Positions 59 to 43,854 of a stretch of DNA of 43,854 nt are shown in pieces (position 1 is the first letter of the stretch; the number at the start of each line of letters is the position of its first letter). The notes beneath the pieces were generated by a model, which did no database searches, had not been told where the DNA came from, and worked only from the letters and a program-made list of their open reading frames with translations. The translations under genes were made by a program, and so were the position numbers. Origin of the DNA: an uncultured Selenomonadales bacterium (GTDB taxonomy: Bacteria > Bacillota > Negativicutes > Selenomonadales > Selenomonadaceae); NCBI GenBank assembly GCA_946407095.1, contig CAMJMR010000020.1:1-43854 (forward strand), given 5' to 3'.

Positions 59-275
59 TGTTGGCAGGTTATCGGCTCCGATTTGTATTGTCAATGACTT
101 TTGTGTTTAGGATCTACTTTTTCTTTGACCGGCCAAAGACCCGCTTTAAAAGCGGGTGAACAATTGGGACGCGGCGTCCACCCTTAAGCCATCGACGACT
201 TTCAGCGCGCCATCCGGATGCAACGTCACGTTGCCGGCCTCTGTCCCCTGCTACTCGCTCGTTAATTTATCAACA
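59..275 (-). repeat. Dispersed hairpin-rich element, copy 1
   Basis: Read leftward it begins TGTTGATAAATTAACGAG and ends CCTGCCAACA, so the ends are inverted relative to each other. Inside are a GCAACGTGACGTTGC palindrome followed by ATCCGGATGGCGCG, and an ACCCGCTTTTAAAGCGGGT hairpin followed by CTTTG. The same ordered blocks occur in the copies at 5993-6351 and 20568-20910, but this copy is shorter (217 bp). It fills the gene-free stretch before pssA. No open frame is shared by the copies, so I treat it as non-coding DNA or a structured RNA element. Confidence 0.7.
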
Positions 276-7344: not shown

Positions 7345-8523
7345 ATGCGGCGACAAAAATATCTTTCAATCACGGCAATGATAGCCTACTTGGCGTATAT
7401 CGGGATGTTCATTCCGCTGTCGACCGATTTGTATCTGCCGGCGTTGCCCGAAATGGGCGGCTACTTTTCGGCAAGCGAATTCCTTGTCGGCTTGACGCTG
7501 ACGATATTTTTTTTCGTCTTCGCGGTGAGCATGGTGCTGTTCGGTCCTTTGAGCGACAAATTCGGGCGCAGACCGATTTTGATATTCGGCGCGGCGATTT
7601 ATACGGCGGCGTCGTTTGCCTGCGCGGAGGCGTCGAACATTTATTTCCTGTTGGCGGGCAGATTTTTTCAAGCGGTCGGCTCGGGCGCAGTCATAACGGT
7701 TGCGACGGCTCTGATTAAAGATTGTTTTCGCGGAGCCGTCATGCGGAAGATTTTGGCAATCACGCAAGCCCTTGGAGTCATTGCGCCGATGGTTGCGCCG
7801 CTGGTCGGAGGAATTTTGCTGACGTTCACCGATTGGCGCGGCTCGTTCTATCTGCTGACGTTTTTGGGCACGATAAACTTATTCGTAGCCTTTTTATTTT
7901 GTGAGACGTTGCCCGAACACAAACGCTATCGCGGCGGCATTTTCGCTTCGCTGACGTTGCTAATCGGCGTCTTGAAGAAAAAATCTTTCATGGCGAAGCT
8001 GGTTATGTTTTCGATGCTGTCCGCGCCATACATGGCCTACCTTAGCGCGTCGTCGTTCATCTACGTGGAATTTTTCGGGCTGACCGCGCAGGAATACAGT
8101 TACTTCTTCGCGGTGAACTCGGCGGTGTCAATCGCGGGGCCGTTCCTTTACCTCAAGCTGAAAAACTCAATGACGAACGTCGGGCTGTTACGTTTGTGTT
8201 TCTTCGCGGCCATGGCAAGCGGGCTTTTGGTCTTAAGCGTCGGGCAGGCGCGGGCGGTGATGTTTTTGCTGGCGTTCCTGCCGTTCACGGTGATTGGCTC
8301 GGTCGTGCGGCCGTTCGCCATGGAAATTTTGCTCATGGAGGCTAAAGAAAACGTCGGAACAAACGCGTCAATGATAAATTTCGTGCACACGCTTTTCGGG
8401 AGCCTCGGCATGGCATTGGGGACTTTGCCTTGGAGCAATTTCGTCGACGGGCTCGGAATAATCATGACGACTTCGACTTTTCTGTCGGTCGTGCTGTGGA
8501 TTCTGATTCGGAAGCCGCTTTGA
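7345..8523 (+). CDS. MFS exporter, Bcr/CflA (drug:H+ antiporter) type
   Basis: A 392-residue inner-membrane protein with about twelve hydrophobic segments. The family start STDLYLPALPEMGGYF and the loop 2-3 motif GPLSDKFGRRPIL are clear, as is the motif-C-like stretch APMVAPLVGG. Members export small molecules such as bicyclomycin, chloramphenicol or cysteine by proton antiport; the substrate here is unknown. AGGCG lies before ATG 7345. The preceding terminator implies it is transcribed separately or by readthrough from the GntR gene. Confidence 0.88.
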   Translation: MRRQKYLSITAMIAYLAYIGMFIPLSTDLYLPALPEMGGYFSASEFLVGLTLTIFFFVFAVSMVLFGPLSDKFGRRPILIFGAAIYTAASFACAEASNIYFLLAGRFFQAVGSGAVITVATALIKDCFRGAVMRKILAITQALGVIAPMVAPLVGGILLTFTDWRGSFYLLTFLGTINLFVAFLFCETLPEHKRYRGGIFASLTLLIGVLKKKSFMAKLVMFSMLSAPYMAYLSASSFIYVEFFGLTAQEYSYFFAVNSAVSIAGPFLYLKLKNSMTNVGLLRLCFFAAMASGLLVLSVGQARAVMFLLAFLPFTVIGSVVRPFAMEILLMEAKENVGTNASMINFVHTLFGSLGMALGTLPWSNFVDGLGIIMTTSTFLSVVLWILIRKPL

Positions 8524-8566
8524 CGGCACGAAAATTTTTTGCTAAACTCGGCGCGGAGATGATTCA

Positions 8567-8857
8567 ATGGAAAAATTCAATCCGACTTACAGCTTGACCG
8601 AATTCAAGAACTCTGATTTTGAAATCACTACTACTGCACGCAAAACGGCTACCGACTTGGGCTTTGACAAAAAGAGAATTCACAATGTTGTTTCTACGAT
8701 GGAGCTAAAACATTTTTACAAGTCAATGACTTCTTACGCCAATCACAAAATTTGGCAAGATGTTTACCACGTGCCCTACGGGGATTTGATTCTTTACATA
8801 AAGTTTACTCAAGACGTCATTTCGGAATTTACGTTGCTGTCGTTCAAGGAAAAATAG
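8567..8857 (+). CDS. mqsR: MqsR-type mRNA interferase toxin
   Basis: MqsR toxins are RelE-fold ribonucleases that cut mRNA (GCU sites in E. coli) and arrest growth. The 96-residue length and the family motif are clear: LGF, then FYKSMTSYANHKIWQDVY, GDLILYIKF and LLSFKEK at the end. GGAG lies eight bases before the ATG. The partner gene begins eleven bases downstream, in the toxin-first order typical of mqsRA. Confidence 0.9.
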   Translation: MEKFNPTYSLTEFKNSDFEITTTARKTATDLGFDKKRIHNVVSTMELKHFYKSMTSYANHKIWQDVYHVPYGDLILYIKFTQDVISEFTLLSFKEK

Positions 8858-8867
8858 GAGTGATAAC

Positions 8868-9104
8868 ATGGAGACTCGAATTCATCCCGAAACAGGAGAA
8901 ATTTTGCGCCGCGACATTCGACCCGTTAAATACACGTACAGAGGCGAATCAATTACTGTCGACCAACCTGGTTGGTATCCTGCCGAAGGTGACGAAGGAA
9001 TTCTCACAAGTGCGGACATGGATGTTTCTGACAAAGCGTTGAGAATTTTAAAATCACGCTACGAAAATCGTACCGGTGAATTTGCTGATTTGTCTTTCGC
9101 TTAA
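8868..9104 (+). CDS. MqsA-like antitoxin, short form without zinc site or HTH
   Basis: Only 78 residues. The segment KYTYRGESITVDQPGWYP resembles the N-terminal, toxin-binding domain of MqsA (PYTFRGRKTVLKGIHGLY in the E. coli protein). The zinc-binding cysteines are absent: the E. coli YCVHCEES is YPAEGDEG here. The C-terminal helix-turn-helix that makes MqsA a DNA-binding repressor is also missing. TAGGAG lies eight bases before the ATG. It probably neutralises MqsR but is unlikely to autoregulate by the known route (inference). A terminator follows immediately. Confidence 0.75.
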   Translation: METRIHPETGEILRRDIRPVKYTYRGESITVDQPGWYPAEGDEGILTSADMDVSDKALRILKSRYENRTGEFADLSFA

Positions 9105-9110
9105 AGTTTC

Positions 9111-9142
9111 AGCCTCGACATTATGTTGAGGCTCTTTTTTTT
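9111..9142 (+). terminator. Terminator after mqsRA
   Basis: AGCCTCGACATTATGTTGAGGCT hairpin followed by eight T residues. A near-identical second copy lies at 9410-9441, overlapping the trkH stop; see the repeat array between them. Confidence 0.85.
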
Positions 9143-9169
9143 ACCAATTCCTTGACTTGTGCCAAAAGC

Positions 9170-9409
9170 AAGCGTGACGCTTGACCCAGATAGCGCGCCG
9201 TGCCGTTCGACACTTTCAGCCGACAGCCGCGCCGATACGAAATGGCAACGTGACGTTGCATCCAGTAAGCGCGCCGTGCCGTTCGACACTTTCAGCCGAC
9301 AGCCGCGCCGATACGAAATGGCAACGTGACGTTGCATCCAGTAAGCGCGCCGTGCCGTTCGACACTTTCAGCTAATCGCCGCGCCGATACCAAATGCATG
9401 CGCATTTCT
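9170..9409 (-). repeat. 76-bp tandem repeat array inside a duplicated trkH 3' end
   Basis: Three units, with GCGCGCCGTGCCG at 9193, 9269 and 9345 (exact 76-bp spacing). Each unit contains a palindrome (AAGCGTGACGCTT in the first, GCAACGTGACGTTGC in the others) followed by CCAGATAGCGCGCC or CCAGTAAGCGCGCC. The array is bracketed by a 59-bp direct duplication, 9111-9169 and 9410-9468. This duplication contains the terminator hairpin and, on the minus strand, the last codons of trkH. Hence the array sits between an intact trkH end and a spare copy of it. No gene is present in this stretch. Confidence 0.85.
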
Positions 9410-9439
9410 AGCCTCGACAATATGTTGAGACTCTTTTTT

Positions 9440-10903
9440 TTACCAATTCCTTGACTTGTGCCAAAAGCTCGGGCTCAACAGCGCAAGCACCGTGAATATT
9501 TCCAGGCGGCTAAGGAACATGAAACCACACGCGCATAATTTGCTGAAACTCGGCAACAGATTGTAACCGCTCGTTGCGCCCTCTATCCCGAAGCCCGGAC
9601 CCACGCTCGCCATCGTCGACACCGAAACGCTTATCGCATTGACGAAGTCTATCCCGTCGAACATCATCACCGCCGCGAACAAAATATCCAGCACCACCAC
9701 CGCAAAGAAAAATTTCGCCGCGCCGTAAACAACATCCTCGTCCAATGCCCGCCCGCTCAACTTCACTTGGCTGATAACATTCGGGTGAAGCTTTTGACGC
9801 ACGATAAGCGCAACGAACTTGAACAGCAAAATTATCCTCGCGACCTTCAAGCCGCCCGCCGTCGAACCCGCGCAACCGCCCAGGAACATCATCATCATCA
9901 TGAAGACTTTACTTATCGGCGGATATTTGTCGAAGTCGTGCGCCACAAAGCCCGTCGTCGAACTCAAGCTCGCCACGTGAAACACCGACGCCCTTATCGC
10001 CGCTTCGGGCGGCGCGTGCATTTCTATCGCCAAGTCAAGCGCGATAACGACCGCCGCCACCGTGATTATTATCAAATACGTTCGGAACTCGGTATTGCGG
10101 AAAATCACGCCGACGCTCCCGTTCCTGAACGCCACCAAGTACATTGCAAAGCTCCCGCTCGACACAATCATAAAGAACGCCATGCAATATTCAAGGTAAG
10201 CGTTGCCGTACTCGTTGACCGTCCCGTTGAACACGCCGAAGCCGCCCGTCGCTATCGTCGTCATTGCGTGGTTTATTGCCGTGAACACGTCAAGCCCGCA
10301 TAAAAAATACGCCGCCGCGCAGAGCGTCGTAAGCGCAACGTATATCATGAACAGCCCCTTCGCGTTGTCGCGTATCCTCGGCATTTGCCGTTCCTTAGTC
10401 GGCCCCGTCGTCTCCGCCTTCAGGATGAACATTGCGCCACGCCCGAACTGCGGGGCTATCGCCATAAAGATGACGACGATTCCCAGCCCGCCGAACCAAT
10501 TCGACATGCTCCGCCACAACAGAATTGAACGCGGCAAAATTTCTACGTCATTGATAACCGTCGCGCCCGTCCCGCTGAAGCCCGAAAACGATTCGACCAG
10601 GCTGTCAAGGAAATTCAGCCAGCCGCCCGCGAAATACGGCACCAAGCCCAATATCGATATCAGTAGCCAGCCTAAGCCCGTTATCGCTATGCCTTCGCGG
10701 ATGCCGACGTTGTCTTTGCCTTGCAGGCCGCCGAAGCGTTCAAGCTCGAACGTCGTCGCCAAGCATAAAAAAATCGACAGCAAAAAAGCCGCCGCTCCGT
10801 CGAATTCTTCAGTCGTCGCCGCCAAGATAAACGGCGGTATCATCGCCGCGCCGCACGCCAGCGTCAGGTAGCCGAGCAGTCCCGCCACGATTCGCCTGTT
10901 CAT
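9440..10903 (-). CDS. trkH: Potassium uptake protein, TrkH/KtrB family
   Basis: A membrane-embedded subunit of K+ (or Na+-dependent K+) uptake, 487 residues with four M1-pore-M2 repeats. Pore-like loops include SGFSGTGATV, TTIATGGFGVFN, SSTTGFVAHDF and SMASVGPGFGIEG, each with a central glycine. The cytosolic regulator (TrkA/KtrA) is not in the window. GGGAG lies eight bases before ATG 10903. The gene is downstream of the HNH nuclease gene but separated from it by a repeat array. Its final codons are duplicated at 9143-9169 by another array. Confidence 0.93.
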   Translation of the reverse strand: MNRRIVAGLLGYLTLACGAAMIPPFILAATTEEFDGAAAFLLSIFLCLATTFELERFGGLQGKDNVGIREGIAITGLGWLLISILGLVPYFAGGWLNFLDSLVESFSGFSGTGATVINDVEILPRSILLWRSMSNWFGGLGIVVIFMAIAPQFGRGAMFILKAETTGPTKERQMPRIRDNAKGLFMIYVALTTLCAAAYFLCGLDVFTAINHAMTTIATGGFGVFNGTVNEYGNAYLEYCMAFFMIVSSGSFAMYLVAFRNGSVGVIFRNTEFRTYLIIITVAAVVIALDLAIEMHAPPEAAIRASVFHVASLSSTTGFVAHDFDKYPPISKVFMMMMMFLGGCAGSTAGGLKVARIILLFKFVALIVRQKLHPNVISQVKLSGRALDEDVVYGAAKFFFAVVVLDILFAAVMMFDGIDFVNAISVSVSTMASVGPGFGIEGATSGYNLLPSFSKLCACGFMFLSRLEIFTVLALLSPSFWHKSRNW

Positions 10904-10950
10904 GAAATTTACTCCCTGCTGTTAATCATTACGCATTGCTTTTCCGCCGG

Positions 10951-11449
10951 TTGCACGCCTTGCAAAGCATTTGGCAGTTGTCCTCCGCCGTCTTGCCGGC
11001 AACGTGACGTTGCATCCAGATAGCGCGCCGTGCCGTCCGACAAGTTCAGCAAATCGCCGCGTTTTGAACGCCTCCCGCTCACTGCTTGCCCTTCCGCCGG
11101 TTGCACGCCTTGCAAAGCATTTGGCAGTTGTCCTCCGTCGTCTTGCCGGCAACGTGACGTTGCATCCAGATAGCGCGCCGTGCCGTCCGACAAGTTCAGC
11201 AAATCGCCGCGTTTTGAACGCCTCCCGCTCACTGCTTGCCCTTCCGCCGGTTGCACGCCTTGCAAAGCATTTGGCAGTTGTCCTCCGTCGTCTTGCCGGC
11301 AACGTGACGTTGCATCCAGATAGCGCGCCGTGCCGTCCGACAAGTTCAGCAAATCGCCGCGTTTTGAACGCCTCCCGCTCACTGCTTGCCCTTCCGCCGG
11401 TTGCACGCCTTGCAAAGCATTTGACAGTTTTCCTCCGTCGTCTTGCCGC
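10951..11449 (-). repeat. 150-bp tandem array, each unit carrying the 3' end of the HNH gene
   Basis: TTGCACGCCTTGCAAAGCAT occurs at 10951, 11101, 11251 and 11401, an exact 150-bp period. Read leftward, one unit is about 69 bases of HNH-gene end (coding for KTTEENCQMLCKACNRRKGK and the stop) plus about 81 bases of element: GTCGGACGGCACGGCGCGCT, then ATCTGGATGCAACGTCACGT. Only the rightmost copy is joined to the gene. The copy nearest trkH diverges after CGGCGGAA. The long open frames across this array on both strands are repeat artefacts. Confidence 0.9.
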
Positions 11450-12485
11450 CCGCGCTCCAAGGGTCTATGTGGTCGCCTTCCATCTCCGAACTGTCAAAGT
11501 GTTCGCCGCACGCCGCGCAGATTCCGCCTTGCCGCTCGTAAGCCGCCTGCTTCATCGCCTCGCTGAACTTGCGCAAGTTCAAATGCTTTTCGTCGCCGCT
11601 CAAAAGATATTCGTAAATCCCGCGCTTGTTCGTGACCTCGTCGTCCAAAATCAACCGTCGAATCTTCCGCTCCAAAGCGTCGGCGTCCCATGCCTGCGCG
11701 GCGTACCGATTATAGAACAAGCCCCACTCCAAGCCCTTCATGAGTTTGCCGCGAAAAATCGGGAACGTCCGCTGCGTCCAAGCCATAACCGCCTCGAAAT
11801 ACTGCCACAAGTCGGAGGCCGTCGCCGTCCGATTTTGTTTTTGCGCGTCCATGTAAAGTGCCAAGTCGCTCAAGCCGTCGCGGTCGGATATCCACTTCAG
11901 CGCGGTCTCCAAAAAATTTTGCCGTATCGCCGTGCCGCTCAAGTAATTCCTGTACTGCATGTGCGCGGGGCAATTCGGGCGGCTGAAATACTTCTTCGCG
12001 TCGGTCAGCCACGGGCAAGCGTATATCGCATTGCGCGCCTCCTGCGCCGTCAACTTTTCGCCCGACGTGTTGATTATATCAAACCAATCAAGCTTCTCTT
12101 GGTCGTTGCCCTCGCAAATGTAAATCATCAGCTTGTAGTTCAAAATCTGTTCCCGTGCGGTCTCCGTCAAGCTCCCGAAGCTTTTGTAGTCCAAAGAGAA
12201 CAAGCCCGTCACGTATTGGCAAATGCTTATCGTGCGCTGTTGGCCGTCCAGCATCTCGAAAGTCCCGTCCTCTGCGCCGCGCACCCAATACATCACGTTC
12301 AGCGGAAAATTTTTCTGCACAGTCCGAATCACTTTGTTGCGCTGCTCGCTGTCATAGACGAATTCCCTTTGGAAGGCGGGGCGAATGTTCAGCTTGCCGC
12401 CGTAGCCCAGACAGCCCAAGTTCGGGTCGTCGACAAAGCCCGCCGCCACCTCGCGCACAGGAATTTCATGCATCGTTATTTCCAT
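11379..12485 (-). CDS. DUF262 / HNH endonuclease
   Basis: A 368-residue protein. The N-terminal half is a DUF262 (ParB/GmrS-like) domain with the EMLDGQQRTISI motif near residue 80. The C-terminus is an HNH nuclease: CAACGEHFDSSEMEGDHIDP (first Cys pair and the DH), then NCQMLCKACN with the second Cys pair. It starts three bases after the stop of an EcoRI-type adenine methylase, with GGAGG inside the methylase gene, so the two form one operon. The pairing suggests a restriction-modification system in which this is the nuclease. GmrSD-like enzymes cut modified DNA, so a modification-dependent role is possible. Its 3' end is copied three more times downstream. Confidence 0.85.
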   Translation of the reverse strand: MEITMHEIPVREVAAGFVDDPNLGCLGYGGKLNIRPAFQREFVYDSEQRNKVIRTVQKNFPLNVMYWVRGAEDGTFEMLDGQQRTISICQYVTGLFSLDYKSFGSLTETAREQILNYKLMIYICEGNDQEKLDWFDIINTSGEKLTAQEARNAIYACPWLTDAKKYFSRPNCPAHMQYRNYLSGTAIRQNFLETALKWISDRDGLSDLALYMDAQKQNRTATASDLWQYFEAVMAWTQRTFPIFRGKLMKGLEWGLFYNRYAAQAWDADALERKIRRLILDDEVTNKRGIYEYLLSGDEKHLNLRKFSEAMKQAAYERQGGICAACGEHFDSSEMEGDHIDPWSAGGKTTEENCQMLCKACNRRKGKQ

Positions 12486-12488
12486 TGC

Positions 12489-13541
12489 TTAAGCCCTCCT
12501 CCGAATCAAAATCCGCTTGTAAATTTTTTTTCCGCCGATAAAAAGTTCCGCGCATAAGGAATAGCCGTCGACGCCATACGAGCCTGCATTGCCGAGAATT
12601 TCAAACTGCGCGGGGTTGTAGCGGTCGAGGAAGGTTATCGGCACGCCCATGACGCCGTCGTAGTCGCAGGGGATGAAAGCGGTCTTCGGGACTTCGATGG
12701 CGTCGTAGTTGTCGTAGTGCGGAAAGAGTTCGGGCTCCTGCGCGTAACGTTTGAACAGCACAATTTCTTCGTGCCGCTTGCTTACGTCCATGTTCGTGAA
12801 CCAGTGCAAATTTCTGAACTTCACGAGCCCCGTCGCCGAATCGTAAACACCGTCGGCAAAATTTTTGTATTGACCGTTCGGCAAGCGGAAGTAAGCGTTG
12901 CCCTTTTGGAAGCCGTAGCCGAGCCAGATTTTATTTTCCTGAATGAGCTTGAAAATTTCCTTGTAGGTGACGGCGTTCATGTTGCCGATGATGAGGAATT
13001 TTTTATCGGCGTCGACGAGTTGCTTGACGTATTGGCGGAAAAGACTGAAGGGCGGATTGGTGACGACGATATCAGCTTGCCTTAGGGCGTCTTTGCATTC
13101 TTGGGAGCGGAAGTCGCCGTCGCCTTCGAGATAGGTAACGACGTTGCGATTGTTTTCGAGCAAAAGCTTGACGTCGGCAAGGTCGGTTGCGCCGTCGCCG
13201 TTCAGGTCGCGCACTTCGGAGACTTCGAGCTTGATTGCGTGCTTGCGCTTGTCGAAGTGAGGATTTTCGTTGGCGGTGCCCCAAAAGTCGAGTTCGGTCT
13301 GGACAATGGGCGAGCCGGCATAGCAAGTGGCGATAAGTTTGCGCAGGCCGAGCTGATTGAAGTAAATCGCGAAGTATTTAAAGAAGTCGCTTTCGTAAGG
13401 GTCGTCGCAGTTGCAAAGGACGGTTTTGCCCGCGAAGAATTTTTGATAGTGAGCGAGTTCGCGTTCGATGTCTTCGAGGCGGGTATAGAATTCGTCCTTT
13501 TTCGCCCGCGCGGCCGAGTTAAGGTTTTTGTTGCCTGCCAT
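12489..13541 (-). CDS. Adenine-specific DNA methyltransferase, EcoRI-methylase family
   Basis: 350 residues, close to M.EcoRI in length. Shared signatures are KDEFYTRLEDIERELAHY near the start, KTVLCNCDDPYESDFFKYF, and the catalytic motif DIVVTNPPFSLFRQYV (motif IV, NPPF) near residue 165. It methylates the N6 position of adenine using S-adenosylmethionine. The recognition sequence cannot be derived from this evidence. AGGAGG lies eight bases before ATG 13541. It is followed by the DUF262-HNH gene. Confidence 0.9.
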   Translation of the reverse strand: MAGNKNLNSAARAKKDEFYTRLEDIERELAHYQKFFAGKTVLCNCDDPYESDFFKYFAIYFNQLGLRKLIATCYAGSPIVQTELDFWGTANENPHFDKRKHAIKLEVSEVRDLNGDGATDLADVKLLLENNRNVVTYLEGDGDFRSQECKDALRQADIVVTNPPFSLFRQYVKQLVDADKKFLIIGNMNAVTYKEIFKLIQENKIWLGYGFQKGNAYFRLPNGQYKNFADGVYDSATGLVKFRNLHWFTNMDVSKRHEEIVLFKRYAQEPELFPHYDNYDAIEVPKTAFIPCDYDGVMGVPITFLDRYNPAQFEILGNAGSYGVDGYSLCAELFIGGKKIYKRILIRRRA

Positions 13542-13561
13542 GAGTTTGCCTCCTGTTTAAT

Positions 13562-13710
13562 GGGTGATGACTTCCAAGCGCGGCGATTGGTTGAAGTCAC
13601 GGGCGATTGACCGCGTTATCTGTTCCGCCACTTCTAAAGTGGCCGCGTTATCTGTTCCGTCGCTTTTAAAGCGACCGCGTTATCTGGGTCAAGCTTGCGT
13701 CGATTATAAT
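13562..13710 (-). repeat. Tandem hairpin repeat with paired base changes
   Basis: The box GCGTTATCTG occurs three times, separated by two hairpins: GCCACTTCTAAAGTGGC and GTCGCTTTTAAAGCGAC. The stems differ in sequence but both stay paired, and the end AAGCTTG beside the box CAGATAACGCG matches the core of the other elements. It fills the 5' flank of the methylase gene. No gene is present; the remaining sequence to 13885 is a terminator and a short untranslated region. Confidence 0.7.
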
Positions 13711-13724
13711 GCAAACGCAGTAAA

Positions 13725-13762
13725 AGAAAAATCCCGCTGCATTGTGCAACGGGAAATTTTTT
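13725..13762 (-). terminator. Terminator of small-peptide unit 1
   Basis: TCCCG..TGCA and TGCA..CGGGA form a long stem with A/T tracts on both sides. It ends the leftward transcript of the peptide genes at 14121-13886. Confidence 0.8.
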
Positions 13763-13765
13763 ATT

Positions 13766-13779
13766 GGGGAGGGATTTTT
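13766..13779 (-). promoter_or_regulatory. Conserved CCCTCCCC motif before the terminator (unit 1)
   Basis: On the transcribed strand this reads AAAAATCCCTCCCC. The same 14 bases occur at 14371-14384 in the second unit, also directly before the terminator. It contains CCTCC and could pair with the GGAGG sites of the peptide genes upstream in the same transcript. The conservation is visible; the pairing role is inference. Confidence 0.5.
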
Positions 13780-13885
13780 AAAGCTGTATTGCAACGCGAG
13801 GGTAAATAATTCGTGGCCGACGCTCCCAGGAGCCGCCGCCAAGATACCTTCGCGAAGGAAAGCGATTAACCGGTCTTAACGGAAA

Positions 13886-13981
13886 TTATTTCAACCAGAC
13901 GAGTGCCAGCCCGATAGCCAATGAGCAGACAAAAAGCCCCGTGCTCACCGCGATAGCACTGTCTTTGAAGATATGCTTCAC
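13886..13981 (-). CDS. Small membrane peptide 1 (31 aa)
   Basis: GTG start at 13981 with AGGAGG exactly eight bases upstream. The peptide begins KHIFKDSAIAV and continues through one hydrophobic segment (TGLFVCSLAIGLALV) to WLK. It is a clear paralogue of the peptide at 14405-14512 (KDSAIAV/DDSVFAI and CSLAIGLALV/CSLAVGLALV). It is the second gene of a two-gene unit with 14026-14121. Size, single membrane span and lysine ends resemble type I toxin peptides or other small membrane regulators. I do not recognise a named family. Confidence 0.7.
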   Translation of the reverse strand: MKHIFKDSAIAVSTGLFVCSLAIGLALVWLK

Positions 13982-14025
13982 AGACGATGCCTCCTTGCGA
14001 AAAAGATTGAGTGCGCGGCGCCGAT

Positions 14026-14121
14026 TCAGAAAACGTTTTCGAGACCGTAGAGCAATACCAATCCGACGACCGGCAACGCGCCGAAAAGTTTTGCTCCGCT
14101 CTCTACAAGAAATTTCTTCAT
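14026..14121 (-). CDS. Small membrane peptide 2 (31 aa)
   Basis: ATG at 14121, AGGAGG exactly eight bases upstream, and a consensus-like promoter at 14172-14199. The peptide starts MKKFLVESGAKLFGAL, followed by VVGLVLLYGLENVF: one probable membrane span. It has the same length as peptide 1 and precedes it by 44 bases, but has little sequence likeness to it. The pair could act together, as two-peptide systems do, or be unrelated. Function unknown. Confidence 0.7.
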   Translation of the reverse strand: MKKFLVESGAKLFGALPVVGLVLLYGLENVF

Positions 14122-14171
14122 GAGGGTAGCCTCCTTTTGCGTTTGATGTCCAATCCTTTGGAACGGCGCCG

Positions 14172-14199
14172 ATTATATCACATGAAAAAAACTTGGCAA
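14172..14199 (-). promoter_or_regulatory. Promoter of small-peptide unit 1
   Basis: Leftward TTGCCA (14199-14194), 16-bp spacer, TATAAT (14177-14172). The upstream base context CGCATTGCCAA and the TGTGA just before the -10 box are shared with the promoter of unit 2. Confidence 0.75.
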
Positions 14200-14326
14200 T
14201 GCGGAATTGGTATTGTTTCGTTTCGCCTTTGTTATCGTTCGTCCGCGTTTCGATTTTAATTGAAACTTGCGAGAGGATAAGCGACAAATATTAGCCACAG
14301 ATAAATTTGACATTAAAGCCTTGTTG

Positions 14327-14364
14327 AAAAAAAAAACTCCCCGCCAAAATTCATCAGCGGGGAA
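14327..14364 (-). terminator. Terminator of small-peptide unit 2
   Basis: CCCCGC and GCGGGG stem with a twelve-base loop, followed on the transcribed strand by ten T residues. Laid out like the terminator of unit 1. Confidence 0.85.
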
Positions 14365-14370
14365 TTTTTT

Positions 14371-14384
14371 GGGGAGGGATTTTT
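14371..14384 (-). promoter_or_regulatory. Conserved CCCTCCCC motif before the terminator (unit 2)
   Basis: Identical to the 14-base motif at 13766-13779 and again placed between the last peptide gene and its terminator. It could base-pair with the AGGAGG site at 14521-14526 of the same transcript (inference). Confidence 0.5.
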
Positions 14385-14404
14385 ATTAAAGTTGTGTCGT
14401 GATT

Positions 14405-14512
14405 TCAAATGAATTTATCCATGGCGTAGACGAGTGCCAAGCCTACTGCCAGCGAACAGGCGAACAAGCCCGCGCCGATTGCAAAGACACTGTCATCGAA
14501 GAATTCTTTCAT
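14405..14512 (-). CDS. Small membrane peptide 3 (35 aa), paralogue of peptide 1
   Basis: ATG at 14512 with AGGAGG exactly eight bases upstream and a promoter at 14563-14590. The sequence starts MKEFFDDSVFAIGAG and continues LFACSLAVGLALVYAMDKFI. It aligns with peptide 1 over nearly its whole length, with conservative changes, and the hydrophobic core is kept. This indicates selection on protein sequence. It has its own promoter, CCCTCCCC motif and terminator, so the locus looks like a duplicated transcription unit. Confidence 0.75.
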   Translation of the reverse strand: MKEFFDDSVFAIGAGLFACSLAVGLALVYAMDKFI

Positions 14513-14562
14513 GGTCGTTGCCTCCTGTCTTCGGTCGTCGTTCAATCCCTTGAACAGCGCGA

Positions 14563-14590
14563 AGTATAGCACAGGAAAAATTTTTGGCAA
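14563..14590 (-). promoter_or_regulatory. Promoter of small-peptide unit 2
   Basis: Leftward TTGCCA (14590-14585), 16-bp spacer, TATACT (14568-14563), in the same context as the promoter of unit 1. Confidence 0.75.
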
Positions 14591-14628
14591 TGCGGATTTG
14601 TTATTGATTGGCGTCGTGTTTGCTATTG

Positions 14629-14832
14629 TTCGTCCTCCTTTTGATTGTGTTTGCGGCAAGCGTGACGTTGCATCCAGGGACTAGCCGATACGCAACGCTA
14701 GCGCATTTCTAGCCTCGTAAAATTTCTTATTGTTCGTCCTCCTTTTGATTGTGTTTGCGGCAAGCGTGACGTTGCATCCAGGGACTAGCCGATACGCAAC
14801 GCTAGCGCATTTCTAGCCTCGTAAAATTTTTT
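14629..14832 (-). repeat. 104-bp tandem array, each unit carrying the 3' end of der
   Basis: TTGATTGTGTTTGCGG lies at 14641, 14745 and 14849, an exact 104-bp period. The copy at 14849 is the real end of der. The other two are spare copies of its last about 33 bases (coding for RKHNQK.. and the stop). Each is joined to about 71 bases of element: GCTAGAAATGCGCTAGCGTT, then CTGGATGCAACGTCACGCTT. The spare copies have GGAGGAC where der has GGACGAT. This stretch holds no gene beyond the promoter of the peptide unit. Confidence 0.9.
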
Positions 14833-16165
14833 ATTGTTCATCGTCCTTTTGATTGTGTTTGCGGACGACAAACTTCAGAGGCGTGCCCTCGAAGCCGAAA
14901 CTTTCTCGCAGGCGGTTTTCGATAAAGCGCAGATACGAAAAGTGCAAAAGCTCCGGCTCGTTGACGAAGATGATAAAGCGCGGCGGGTGTATGTCGGCTT
15001 GCGTCACGAAAAAAATTTTCGCGGACTTGCCCTTCTTCGACGGCGGAGGATTGACGGCAACGGCATCGCGAATCAGTTCGTTTAGGACGCTGGTTTGAAT
15101 GCGCATCGATTGTTGCTCTGCCACGAACTTGACAAGCTCGGTCACGCGGTCGACGCGTTGCCCCGTCAAAGCACTCACGTAGACGACTGGCGCGTATTGC
15201 AAGAAGCCAAGGCGTTCGCGCAGGTCGTCGGTGAAGCGATTGGTCGAGCGGTCGTGTTTGTTCGGGAAGATGTCCCACTTGTTGACGACGATAACGCAAC
15301 CCTTGCCCGACTCGTGCGCGTAGCCCGCAATTTTTTTATCCTGCTCCGTGACGCCGACGGGTGCCTCAATCAACATCAGCACGACGTCAGCGCGGTCAAT
15401 CGCCCGAAGCGAACGAATCACGCTGTAGCGTTCGACGGGCTCGTCAATCTTCGCCTTGCGCCTCATGCCAGCCGTATCAATCAGCGTGAACTTCGTGCTG
15501 TCCGTCAAAAAATGCGTGTCTATGGCGTCGCGGGTCGTGCCAGGGATGTCGCTTACGATAACGCGCTCTTCGCCGAGCATGGCATTGACAAGTGACGACT
15601 TGCCGACGTTCGGGCGTCCGATAACCGCAATGCGGATTTCGTCTTCGTCGCGAGTGTCCTGCGCGGCTTGCGGGAAAGTTTTAATCACGGCGTCGAGCAG
15701 GTCGCCCAAGTTCAGGGCGTTGCTTGCCGAAATGCCAATCGGGTCGCCGAGCCCCAGGCTGTAAAATTCGTAGAGTTCGCTTTCCATTTGCGGCGTGTCG
15801 ATTTTGTTGACGGCAAGGATAATCGGCTTGTCGGCTCCGCGCAGGAATTTGGCAACGGCTTCGTCGTCGGCAGTCAAGCCCGCCCGCCCGTCTACGACAA
15901 AGATAATCGCGTCCGCCTCGTCGACGGCAATCTTCGCCTGCGCCCTAATCGAAGTCAGCATCTTATCGGCAGTCTTAATTTCAATGCCGCCCGTGTCAAT
16001 CAGCGTGAATTCGCGGTCAAGCCAAGTGGCGTCCATGTAAATGCGGTCGCGCGTGACGCCCGCCATATCGTCGACAATCGACAGCCGCCGCTTGCCAATC
16101 TGATTGAACAGCGTCGACTTGCCGACATTCGGCCGCCCAACTACCGCTACAATAGGTTTGCTCAT
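14831..16165 (-). CDS. der: GTPase Der (EngA), ribosome assembly
   Basis: An essential GTPase for 50S subunit maturation. It has two G domains in tandem: GRPNVGKST at residues 10-18, then a second GRPNVGKSS near 185 with NKWD in its fourth motif. A KH-like C-terminal domain follows. I chose ATG 16165 (MSKPIVAVVG, AGGAGG ten bases upstream). A longer frame to 16210 has no family support. The 444 residues match the family. The last codons are copied twice downstream in a tandem array. Confidence 0.96.
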   Translation of the reverse strand: MSKPIVAVVGRPNVGKSTLFNQIGKRRLSIVDDMAGVTRDRIYMDATWLDREFTLIDTGGIEIKTADKMLTSIRAQAKIAVDEADAIIFVVDGRAGLTADDEAVAKFLRGADKPIILAVNKIDTPQMESELYEFYSLGLGDPIGISASNALNLGDLLDAVIKTFPQAAQDTRDEDEIRIAVIGRPNVGKSSLVNAMLGEERVIVSDIPGTTRDAIDTHFLTDSTKFTLIDTAGMRRKAKIDEPVERYSVIRSLRAIDRADVVLMLIEAPVGVTEQDKKIAGYAHESGKGCVIVVNKWDIFPNKHDRSTNRFTDDLRERLGFLQYAPVVYVSALTGQRVDRVTELVKFVAEQQSMRIQTSVLNELIRDAVAVNPPPSKKGKSAKIFFVTQADIHPPRFIIFVNEPELLHFSYLRFIENRLRESFGFEGTPLKFVVRKHNQKDDEQ

Positions 16166-16386
16166 CAACAAGTTACCTCCTAATAATTTACCAAAACCGC
16201 CTTCAAGCAAGCGCGGCTTTTTCTTACTGCGCGTGCATTATAATTCGACGCAGAAAATTTTTTAAGCCGGCAAGGAAAATTTTTCATGAGTGCTGTTAGA
16301 CAAACGTTATCGCCGCGCAGAGTTTCTGTCCCTTTACACAGGATTTTAATTAGCCTTGACGAATCAAGCCTTTGGGGTGAATAGCG

Positions 16387-35749: not shown

Positions 35750-35935
35750 GAATTTTTTCGCATGACGAGGCGCGGCCGCTTTGAAAGCGGCGCAAGCGTG
35801 ACGCTTGACCCAGATAGCGCGCCATACCGTCCGACAATTTCAAACGTTATCGCCGCGCCGGAACGAAATGCCTGCGCATTTCTAGCTTCCCGCTTTAAAA
35901 GCGACCGTAAGGCGGAAAAAGAACCGTCACTTGCT
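35750..35935 (-). repeat. Dispersed hairpin element between the E2 and JAB genes
   Basis: Contains CGGCCGCTTTGAAAGCGGC (hairpin), AAGCGTGACGCTT (palindrome) followed by GACCCAGATAGCGCGCCATA, then ATGCCTGCGCATTTCTAGC and a TCCCGCTTTAAAAGCGACC hairpin. Same core and order as the arrays after trkH and der, but in single copy. It lies just after the E2 stop and may reduce or reshape JAB expression (inference). Confidence 0.8.
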
Positions 35936-43736: not shown

Positions 43737-43854
43737 AAGCAAAAGCCCGCTTTAAAAGCGGGAGAACAGCGGACGCGCCTCCACGTGACGACGTTTTAAG
43801 CTAGGGGTTGTTGGTAAAGTCGAGTAAAGAAAAAAACATAAGCAAATCTTTGAT
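43737..43854. repeat. Partial dispersed element and right terminal inverted repeat
   Basis: AAGCCCGCTTTAAAAGCGGG hairpin, AGAACAGCGGACGCG and ACGTGACGACGTTTTAAGC resemble part of copy 1 near the other end of the window. The last 54 bases (43801-43854) are the inverted copy of positions 1-54. Fills the window's end after the MBL promoter. Confidence 0.75.

What the first reader, a model, noticed from the sequence alone, without database searches (positions are those of the whole stretch)
9111..14865. Repeat arrays that copy the 3' end of the gene they sit behind (trkH, HNH gene, der)
At three unlinked genes an element sharing the core CATCCAG...GCGCGCC or its relatives lies just after the stop codon. 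The last 30-70 bases of that gene are repeated together with it: period 76 bp inside a 59-bp duplication (trkH), 150 bp x4 (HNH) and 104 bp x3 (der). Gene ends differ; the element is shared. All have the same orientation relative to the gene. This points to one mechanism that duplicates target and element together and always leaves an intact gene end.
Basis: seen in the sequence. Interest (0 to 1): 0.9.

Follow-up and report, generated by a model that had tools for sequence, protein, structure and literature searches.

The report
Hairpin mobile elements duplicating target DNA
The gene-end repeat arrays are footprints of a very small, abundant hairpin-ended mobile element of rumen Quinella-like bacteria that duplicates from a few up to well over a hundred bases of its target when it inserts, next to gene ends, gene starts and sometimes inside genes; the enzyme that moves it is not known.

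Summary
The three arrays are real, but "copying of gene ends" is a by-product. The shared element (E) begins with a hairpin, usually GCAACG-TGA-CGTTGC plus ATCC. A core pattern has 178 places in the host MAG (reversed control 5); a covariance model finds E in 43 of 66 genomes of the genus. Of 163 copies tested, 71 sit between two copies of a flank (X-E-X) above the 99th percentile of 400 random points. Relatives supply empty sites with one X, so insertion with a long, variable target duplication is shown; arrays by later recombination are inferred. The hairpin end is exact and follows G at 80% of 61 sites (CG at 34); the other end varies (about 20-118 nt). Copies also lie at gene starts and in frame inside genes, so an intact gene end is best explained by selection. 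No Y1 transposase or RVT_1 reverse transcriptase was found in the 89% complete host MAG, and RT genes do not track E. Closest known: YPAL/RU-2. The hairpin 19-mer also occurs in 33 stretches of viral contigs.

The parts
9107..9168 (+). left copy of the duplicated target X at the trkH end (terminator + last codons of trkH, remnant)
9169..9244 (+). element E, CAAGCG-TGA-CGCTTG hairpin type, first unit of a nested tandem
9245..9320 (+). element E, GCAACG-TGA-CGTTGC type, second unit; begins inside the right hairpin of the previous copy (..ACGAAATG^)
9321..9409 (+). element E, third unit with complete right hairpin
9410..9468 (+). right copy of X containing the intact trkH 3' end (trkH is on the - strand)
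10936..10998 (+). first (left) copy of X from the HNH gene end
10999..11061 (+). element E, short form ending CGCCGCG
11062..11148 (+). X copy (HNH gene end)
11149..11211 (+). element E, second copy
11212..11298 (+). X copy (HNH gene end)
11299..11361 (+). element E, third copy
11362..11448 (+). right-most X with the intact HNH gene 3' end (gene on - strand, 11379-12485)
14624..14656 (+). left copy of X from the der gene end
14657..14727 (+). element E, variant with an imperfect left hairpin and lacking most of the middle domain, ending TAGCCTCGTAAAATTTC
14728..14760 (+). X copy (der gene end)
14761..14831 (+). element E, second copy of the variant
14832..14864 (+). right X with the intact der 3' end (der on - strand, 14831-16210)
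   Evidence: single copy in relatives
13609..13686 (-). mini-array: about 20-nt minimal elements (hairpins YCRCTTTARAAGYGRCGGAA) between copies of CAGATAACGCGG, inside an older E body
   Evidence: read from the sequence
35793..35889 (+). single long-form E without a detectable duplication
170..234 (-). E copy inside a larger composite repeat near the contig end

Best explanation
E is a family of very small, non-coding mobile elements of Quinella-like Selenomonadaceae. One end is an exact hairpin (6-bp stem, TGA loop, then ATCC/ACCC; a second type has a CCGCTTTAAAAGCGG hairpin followed by GGAA). The rest is a variable-length passenger that tends to stop at domain boundaries (about 20-24, 62-68 and 85-118 nt). 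SHOWN: insertion duplicates the target (6, 34, 47 and 52 bp against empty sites; up to about 158 bp judged from X-E-X alone); the hairpin end is exact and usually follows a G, mostly CG. INFERRED: a 3' end at the target ('..CG-3'OH') is joined to, or primes copying of, a single-stranded E template starting at the base of the hairpin. Copying stops at a loosely defined point, and the other strand is opened tens of bases away, so both flanks receive X. INFERRED: the direct repeats X then recombine or slip, giving (X-E)n arrays. Insertions that spoil a gene are lost, so survivors keep an intact gene end or start. The trans-acting enzyme is unidentified.
For: Copy number and range. Exact left boundary: offset zero in 40 of the 47 copies with an anchored duplication, of 123 examined; duplicated flank above the null threshold in 71 of 163 copies, host 65 of 152. 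Target preference: X ends in G at 80% and CG at 34 of 61 sites, against 10.9% CG dinucleotides in the background; no clear motif at the start of X. Empty sites: L061:10727 (47-bp X once in G062, three times in the host), L061 minus-strand 12095 (52 bp), L077:10902 (34 bp), L117:1299 (6 bp, TTCCAA); der ends in L147, L149, L159, L160; HNH-type gene beside trkH without an array in L245, L249, L251, L252 and L257. Hairpin kept: 114 of 126 element bodies found without regard to hairpins have a stem of 6 or more just upstream, against 9 of 126 at a control offset; 4 of 6 stem pairs show changes on both sides. Short forms: L117:9007 (33 nt); L081, L107, L119 and window 13609-13686 (read). Insertions of the other hairpin type at the der end in L157 and L182, possibly one shared event.
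Against: 87 of 152 host copies show no duplication above threshold; age, short duplications or composite repeats are the likely reasons but were resolved for only a few. No enzyme was found: no Y1 transposase in G000 and no RVT_1. RNAalifold found only a few weakly supported pairs on alignments that mix hairpin types, and the second helix inside E is weak (70.8% of cells paired). In one search the 100% pairing of helix 1 is partly by construction, because perfect hairpins were selected for that alignment. Of 14 host copies in the three stretches compared with relatives, four gave a clean empty site and one more a partial one; five are in composite repeats and four were too diverged or split between contigs.
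Confidence: 0.66

Rival explanations
1. Retroposition: E is a small RNA (bottom strand, hairpin at its 3' end) copied by a reverse transcriptase primed from the nicked target, as in LINE/SINE insertion; variable duplications and 5' truncations follow naturally.
For: Exact hairpin end with target motif, loose other end, short forms ending near domain boundaries, variable duplications.
Against: No RVT_1 protein in G000 at E <= 10. RT genes in 19 of 60 genus genomes do not track E: 8 of 19 RT+ and 26 of 41 RT- genomes have at least 2 copies (Fisher p 0.16, in the opposite direction); 14 of the 19 genomes with at least 20 copies have none. G064 (99% complete, 50 model matches) has none. No untemplated bases in the 40 of 47 junctions with offset zero.
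Confidence: 0.17
2. Replication accident: a stalled nascent strand switches to an E copy elsewhere, copies it, and returns to an earlier point of its own template (microhomology-mediated template switching); no dedicated enzyme.
For: Explains X-E-X, variable X, a loose second junction and the absence of any recognisable transposase.
Against: The hairpin boundary is exact in dozens of copies and the hairpin is kept by paired changes; switching at random should carry over donor flanks and start at various points. The exact 16-mer is confined to 1 of 17 genera sampled, which suggests a specific factor.
Confidence: 0.13
3. E is a REP/IS200-IS605-like single-strand element moved by a Y1 (RAYT/TnpA) transposase.
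For: Hairpin end, short target motif beside the hairpin, non-autonomous high copy number. G013, which carries E, has a 27-residue fragment match to Y1_Tnp.
Against: No Y1_Tnp match at E <= 0.001 in G000, nor in G003, G005, G014 or G015, which carry E; 3 of the 16 genus members tested (host included) had any match. Y1 insertion leaves no target duplication (established knowledge), whereas duplications are frequent here.
Confidence: 0.05
4. Tandem duplications arose first by slippage; E is only a hairpin that happened to sit at the junctions.
For: Arrays exist, and L148 has a der-end tandem duplication without E.
Against: Relatives have single X and no E at the same places; E boundaries coincide with X boundaries across unrelated X sequences.
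Confidence: 0.03

Closest known systems
YPAL / RU-2 palindromic elements of Yersinia
   Same: Small repeat with internal inverted repeats, target duplications of variable length, empty/filled sites in relatives, and in-frame fusions (PMC2229807, section 11 and passages read).
   Different: YPAL is about 168 bp with duplications of 3-26 bp and targets at or beside dyad symmetries. E is about 20-118 nt, its duplications reach about 158 bp, the target is G/CG with no dyad preference (2 of 53 sites against 143 of 3000 random points), and it forms X-E arrays. The YPAL sequence was not compared.
REP / BIME / REPIN elements and RAYTs; CGTC-tagged REPs
   Same: Short hairpins in high copy, often intergenic; CGTC REPs apparently also lack a dedicated transposase (PMC3733652, abstract and passages).
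   Different: REPs carry a GTAG or CGTC tag; the word 'duplicat' does not occur in that paper's main text. E has a larger passenger and long duplications; no Y1 gene found in the host.
Rickettsia palindromic elements (RPE)
   Same: Small palindromic repeats also found in frame inside conserved protein genes (PMC2229807, PMC10969869 passages); E does so in an flhF-like and a lon-like gene (names from my reading).
   Different: RPEs are about 105-150 bp with terminal inverted repeats and an undecided target duplication (table in PMC2229807); their sequences were not compared.
MITEs of DDE transposons
   Same: Non-autonomous, high copy, target duplication.
   Different: MITEs have terminal inverted repeats and short duplications of fixed length (established knowledge); E shows neither. 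A MITE-like composite with GGGGTTGTTGGTAAA-type ends exists in the same genome and carries some E copies.
Non-LTR retrotransposons / SINEs (established knowledge)
   Same: One exact end, one ragged end, variable duplications, target preference at one nick.
   Different: No reverse transcriptase found; bacterial; no coding partner known.

Membership tests
YPAL/RU-2-like elements | variable-length target duplication | tested here: met
   6 to 52 bp against empty sites, up to about 158 bp from X-E-X
YPAL/RU-2-like elements | insertion at or beside dyad symmetries | tested here: not met
   2 of 53 sites with a stem of 6 or more, random 143 of 3000
YPAL/RU-2-like elements | sequence similarity to YPAL | not tested
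   YPAL sequence was not fetched
REP elements moved by RAYT | GTAG tag at the hairpin foot | tested here: not met
   upstream preference is G at -4 (51%), C at -2 (59%), G at -1 (80%)
REP elements moved by RAYT | RAYT/Y1 transposase in the genome | tested here: not met
   none in G000 (89% complete)
IS200/IS605-derived elements | insertion without target duplication | tested here: not met
   71 of 163 copies with duplicated flanks; empty sites
DDE-transposon MITE | terminal inverted repeats | tested here: not met
   left and right ends are different hairpins, by inspection of alignments
DDE-transposon MITE | target duplication of fixed length | tested here: not met
Retroposon (SINE-like, target-primed) | reverse transcriptase available in the genome | tested here: not met
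   MAG incomplete, divergent RTs could be missed
Retroposon (SINE-like, target-primed) | RNA intermediate | not testable with these tools
   needs expression or mobility assay
Known structured RNA (Rfam) | match to a family at its gathering score | tested here: not met
   window 8000-16300 only

The most novel reading that the evidence does not exclude
A bacterial mobility system of a kind not yet described: a dedicated enzyme recognises the hairpin GCAACGTGACGTTGC-ATCC (as RNA or single-stranded DNA), nicks DNA after (G)CG, copies the hairpin and whatever lies next to it into the nick from one end only, and leaves target duplications of up to well over a hundred bases; the same hairpin 19-mer in uncultivated viral contigs would mean that the system spans unrelated hosts and phages.
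Probability: 0.22. Interest if true: 0.92.

Novelty: new variant of a known kind. Interest (0 to 1): 0.72.

Why it matters
It turns a puzzling 'gene-end copying' pattern into a mobile-element problem with a clear handle: an exact hairpin end, a target motif, dozens of sites with preserved duplications, and empty sites in relatives. Long target duplications give the genome ready-made direct repeats next to genes, a route to tandem arrays, altered gene ends and in-frame peptide insertions. If the mover is a new enzyme, it would be a compact system that writes short sequences into DNA.

Tried and rejected
Y1/RAYT transposase as mover: searched in 25 genomes (16 of the genus, host included), not found in the host. 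Reverse transcriptase: 60 genus genomes, host again at E <= 10, association test: negative. Other enzyme families (integrases, DDE transposases) were not searched. Autonomous copy of E with a gene inside: 8 right halves without a recognised left core among 71, and 12 left halves without the right motif, were looked at in printed contexts of about 120-150 nt; most of the former were complete elements missed by my core pattern, and none showed an enclosed gene, but wider surroundings were not examined. Six ORFs lying between neighbouring E copies are ordinary (chorismate synthase, AIR carboxylase, PagL, desulfoferrodoxin, RNase HII, an exonuclease). Rfam: no family at its gathering score in window 8000-16300. 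Replication-strand preference: GC skew gave no overall bias over 127 sites (60 positive, 64 negative); among 24 strong-skew sites 6 against 18, inconclusive. Hairpins as targets: rejected. The 71-of-163 count uses copies with a perfect hairpin of the main types: 230 candidates, 163 kept after dropping other hairpin types and repeated contexts. The der copies have an imperfect hairpin and are not in that count; several array copies are in it. Viral contigs: the duplication score exceeded the null maximum of 8 in only one of 38 places (L423, 9 bp of low-complexity GAAGAAGAA); L418 and L414 show suggestive 6- and 5-bp repeats within the null range. PLSDB plasmids gave 48 records with weak partial matches to E (best E-value 0.02, none covering 80%), GenBank phages none. 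Not-in-print check: the element strings and the peptide string gave 0 papers; the listings showed no title describing such elements in Quinella; the Quinella genome paper PMC9585023 was searched for repeat/transposon/insertion/palindrome/mobile terms only (one irrelevant hit).
Full report
WHAT WAS SEEN. The window is contig C20 of a 2.6-Mb, 101-contig MAG (89% complete). The closest relatives of its der gene are uncultured Selenomonadales/Selenomonadaceae MAGs, among them Quinella sp. 1Q5 and 1Q7, several from ruminant guts by their titles; 'Quinella-like' is my inference from that. The three arrays are present as described: trkH end 9107-9468, HNH gene end 10936-11448, der end 14619-14864. 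Each has the form X-E-X(-E-X...), with X the 3' end of the gene on the right (genes on the minus strand) plus flanking DNA, and E a shared element. At trkH three E units follow each other without X; the second starts inside the right hairpin of the first.

THE ELEMENT. The pattern RCGTGACGYTKSATCCAG with up to 3 mismatches has 178 places in the MAG against 5 for the reversed control. I fetched 80 stretches (about 485 kb besides the window), 77 around listed copies and 3 unselected. E starts with a hairpin: GCAACG-TGA-CGTTGC most often, also CAAGCG-TGA-CGCTTG, CAAACG-TGA-CGTTTG and CAAGCT-TGA-AGCTTG, followed by ATCC/ACCC. A second type has hairpins such as GCCGCTTTAAAAGCGGC or GCCACTTTAAAAGTGGC followed by GGAA. 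A common body follows (CAG-nnnRCGCG ... CGCCGCG), then often a second hairpin (ACGMAAYGC..GCATTKC) and TAGYYTC, often continuing GTAA. Found without regard to the hairpin, 114 of 126 bodies have a perfect stem of at least 6 bp just upstream, against 9 of 126 at a control offset. In 90 aligned copies 4 of 6 stem pairs change on both sides; the 100% pairing there is partly by construction, and RNAalifold on mixed alignments found only weak pairs. A covariance model finds E in 43 of 66 genomes of the genus at E <= 0.01 (at most 80 candidates per genome were scored, so rich genomes are undercounted). An exact 16-mer of the hairpin end was in 13 of 41 genomes sampled (host included), all of the same genus.

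INSERTION WITH A LONG DUPLICATION. With the hairpin start as a fixed left boundary, 71 of 163 copies (host 65 of 152) have a flank duplication scoring above the 99th percentile of 400 random host positions. In 9 rows with E at the 28-nt limit and 12 rows with E above 130 nt the boundaries are those of array units or neighbouring copies. The left junction is exact (offset zero in 40 of 47 anchored cases). X ends in G at 80% and in CG at 34 of 61 distinct sites (CG is 10.9% of background dinucleotides), with G at -4 in 51%. The start of X shows no clear motif, and E ends at varying places: about 20-24 nt (hairpin and a few bases), 33, 62-68, and 85-118 nt. Relatives supply the before-state. In G062 (81-89% identical in the matches) a 47-bp X is present once where the host has X-E-X-E-X; a 52-bp and a 34-bp X are likewise single; at L117:1299 the duplication is only TTCCAA. 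At L117:15475 G062 lacks E and the host shows a partial duplication of about 9 bp. Of the 14 host copies in the stretches compared, these five were informative; five lie in composite repeats of roughly 280-360 bp whose sites are empty in G062 without long overlap; four were too diverged or split between contigs. At der, L147, L149, L159 and L160 carry a single gene end followed by the sequence that flanks the host array, while L157 and L182 carry an insertion of the second hairpin type at the same gene end (possibly one shared event), and L155 one behind the terminator. For the HNH gene, relatives show an HNH-type gene end beside the trkH start without any array: adjoining or overlapping in L245, L249 and L257, with a short spacer in L251 and L252.

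WHY GENE ENDS. Of 134 host sites, 110 are outside ORF interiors; such sequence is 20% of what was examined (simple longest-ORF calls). The gene on the right turns its 3' end to E in 67 of 99 classified sites. Other duplicated targets are gene starts with the start codon (L125, L126), terminators (L084, L155) and coding sequence. In an flhF-like gene (L091) and a lon-like gene (L053), E and X are in frame and add peptides containing NVTLHPDSA (gene names from my reading of the translations). So the intact gene end is best seen as what selection leaves when part of a gene is duplicated around an insert. Arrays then follow from recombination between X copies (inferred).

MECHANISM. One end is exact and has a target motif; the other is loose in both the element and the target. 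That asymmetry points to copying or joining that starts at the hairpin and at a 3' end after (G)CG, with the second strand opened at a variable distance. An RNA template with a reverse transcriptase would fit, but the MAG has no RVT_1 match even at E <= 10, and RT presence does not follow E: 8 of 19 RT+ against 26 of 41 RT- genomes have at least 2 copies, and 14 of 19 genomes with at least 20 copies have none (E counts typed, RT calls). Y1 transposases are absent from the host; G013, which carries E, has a short fragment match. Hairpins are not preferred targets (2 of 53 against 143 of 3000). The enzyme is therefore open, and a divergent or missing gene cannot be excluded in an 89% complete MAG.

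A WIDER LEAD. The 19-mer GCAACGTGACGTTGCATCC occurs exactly in 33 stretches (30 contigs) of IMG/VR viral contigs, against 0 for a control hairpin with one changed stem pair and 7 for the CAAGCG type. In 7 of 38 places it directly follows TAA or TGA (frames not checked); elsewhere it can be read in frame as QRDVAS (by eye, for example in L416 and L427, whose genes look like terminases to me), and G or A precedes it in 37 of 38 places. Long duplications were not seen there. Hosts and habitats of these contigs were not established.

COMPARISON. The nearest described elements are the Yersinia YPAL/RU-2 repeats, which also leave duplications of variable length (3-26 bp) (PMC2229807, section 11 and passages; the original De Gregorio 2006 paper was not seen). 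E differs in size, in the length of its duplications, in lacking a dyad target and in its arrays. REPs (PMC3733652, abstract and passages) share hairpins and copy number but not the tag or the duplications. The Quinella genome paper (PMC9585023) was only searched for repeat-related words, with one irrelevant hit; the sequence strings gave no paper.

LIMITS. All host sequence is from MAGs; exact array sizes need long reads. Copies without visible duplication (87 of 152) remain only partly explained.

Noticed in passing
L404-L436 (IMG/VR viral contigs): The exact hairpin 19-mer of the element occurs in 33 stretches of viral contigs, in 7 of 38 places right after a stop triplet and elsewhere readable in frame as QRDVAS; control hairpin 0.
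   Followed up: partly
window:1-54 and 43801-43854; L117, L077, L061: Composite repeats of about 280-360 bp with ends like GGGGTTGTTGGTAAA carry E copies inside and insert without long duplications; both window ends break in such repeats.
   Followed up: partly
L053 about 2227; L091 minus strand about 2204: E plus its duplication sits in frame inside a lon-like and an flhF-like gene, adding peptides with NVTLHPDSA.
   Followed up: partly
L061 about 2382-2776 against G062 (L300 1228-1622): A segment of about 395 bp beside an E insertion is inverted between the two genomes.
   Followed up: no
window:11379-13541 (-): A GmrSD_N-HNH protein lies next to an EcoRI-type adenine methylase, a likely restriction-modification pair (Pfam).
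   Followed up: no
window:8567-8857 (+): MqsR-type toxin gene (Pfam) just upstream of the trkH array.
   Followed up: no
window:14161-14262 and 14552-14653: Two 75% identical stretches 391 bp apart beside small ORFs, apparently a paralogous pair of small genes next to der.
   Followed up: no
L148 about 2378: A relative has a tandem duplication of the der end without any E, possibly an element lost or plain slippage.
   Followed up: no
PLSDB NC_010625.1:1230666-1230710 and similar: Weak matches (query bases 3-43, 84%, E 0.02) to the left part of E in Paraburkholderia plasmids, with no annotated gene under the match.
   Followed up: no
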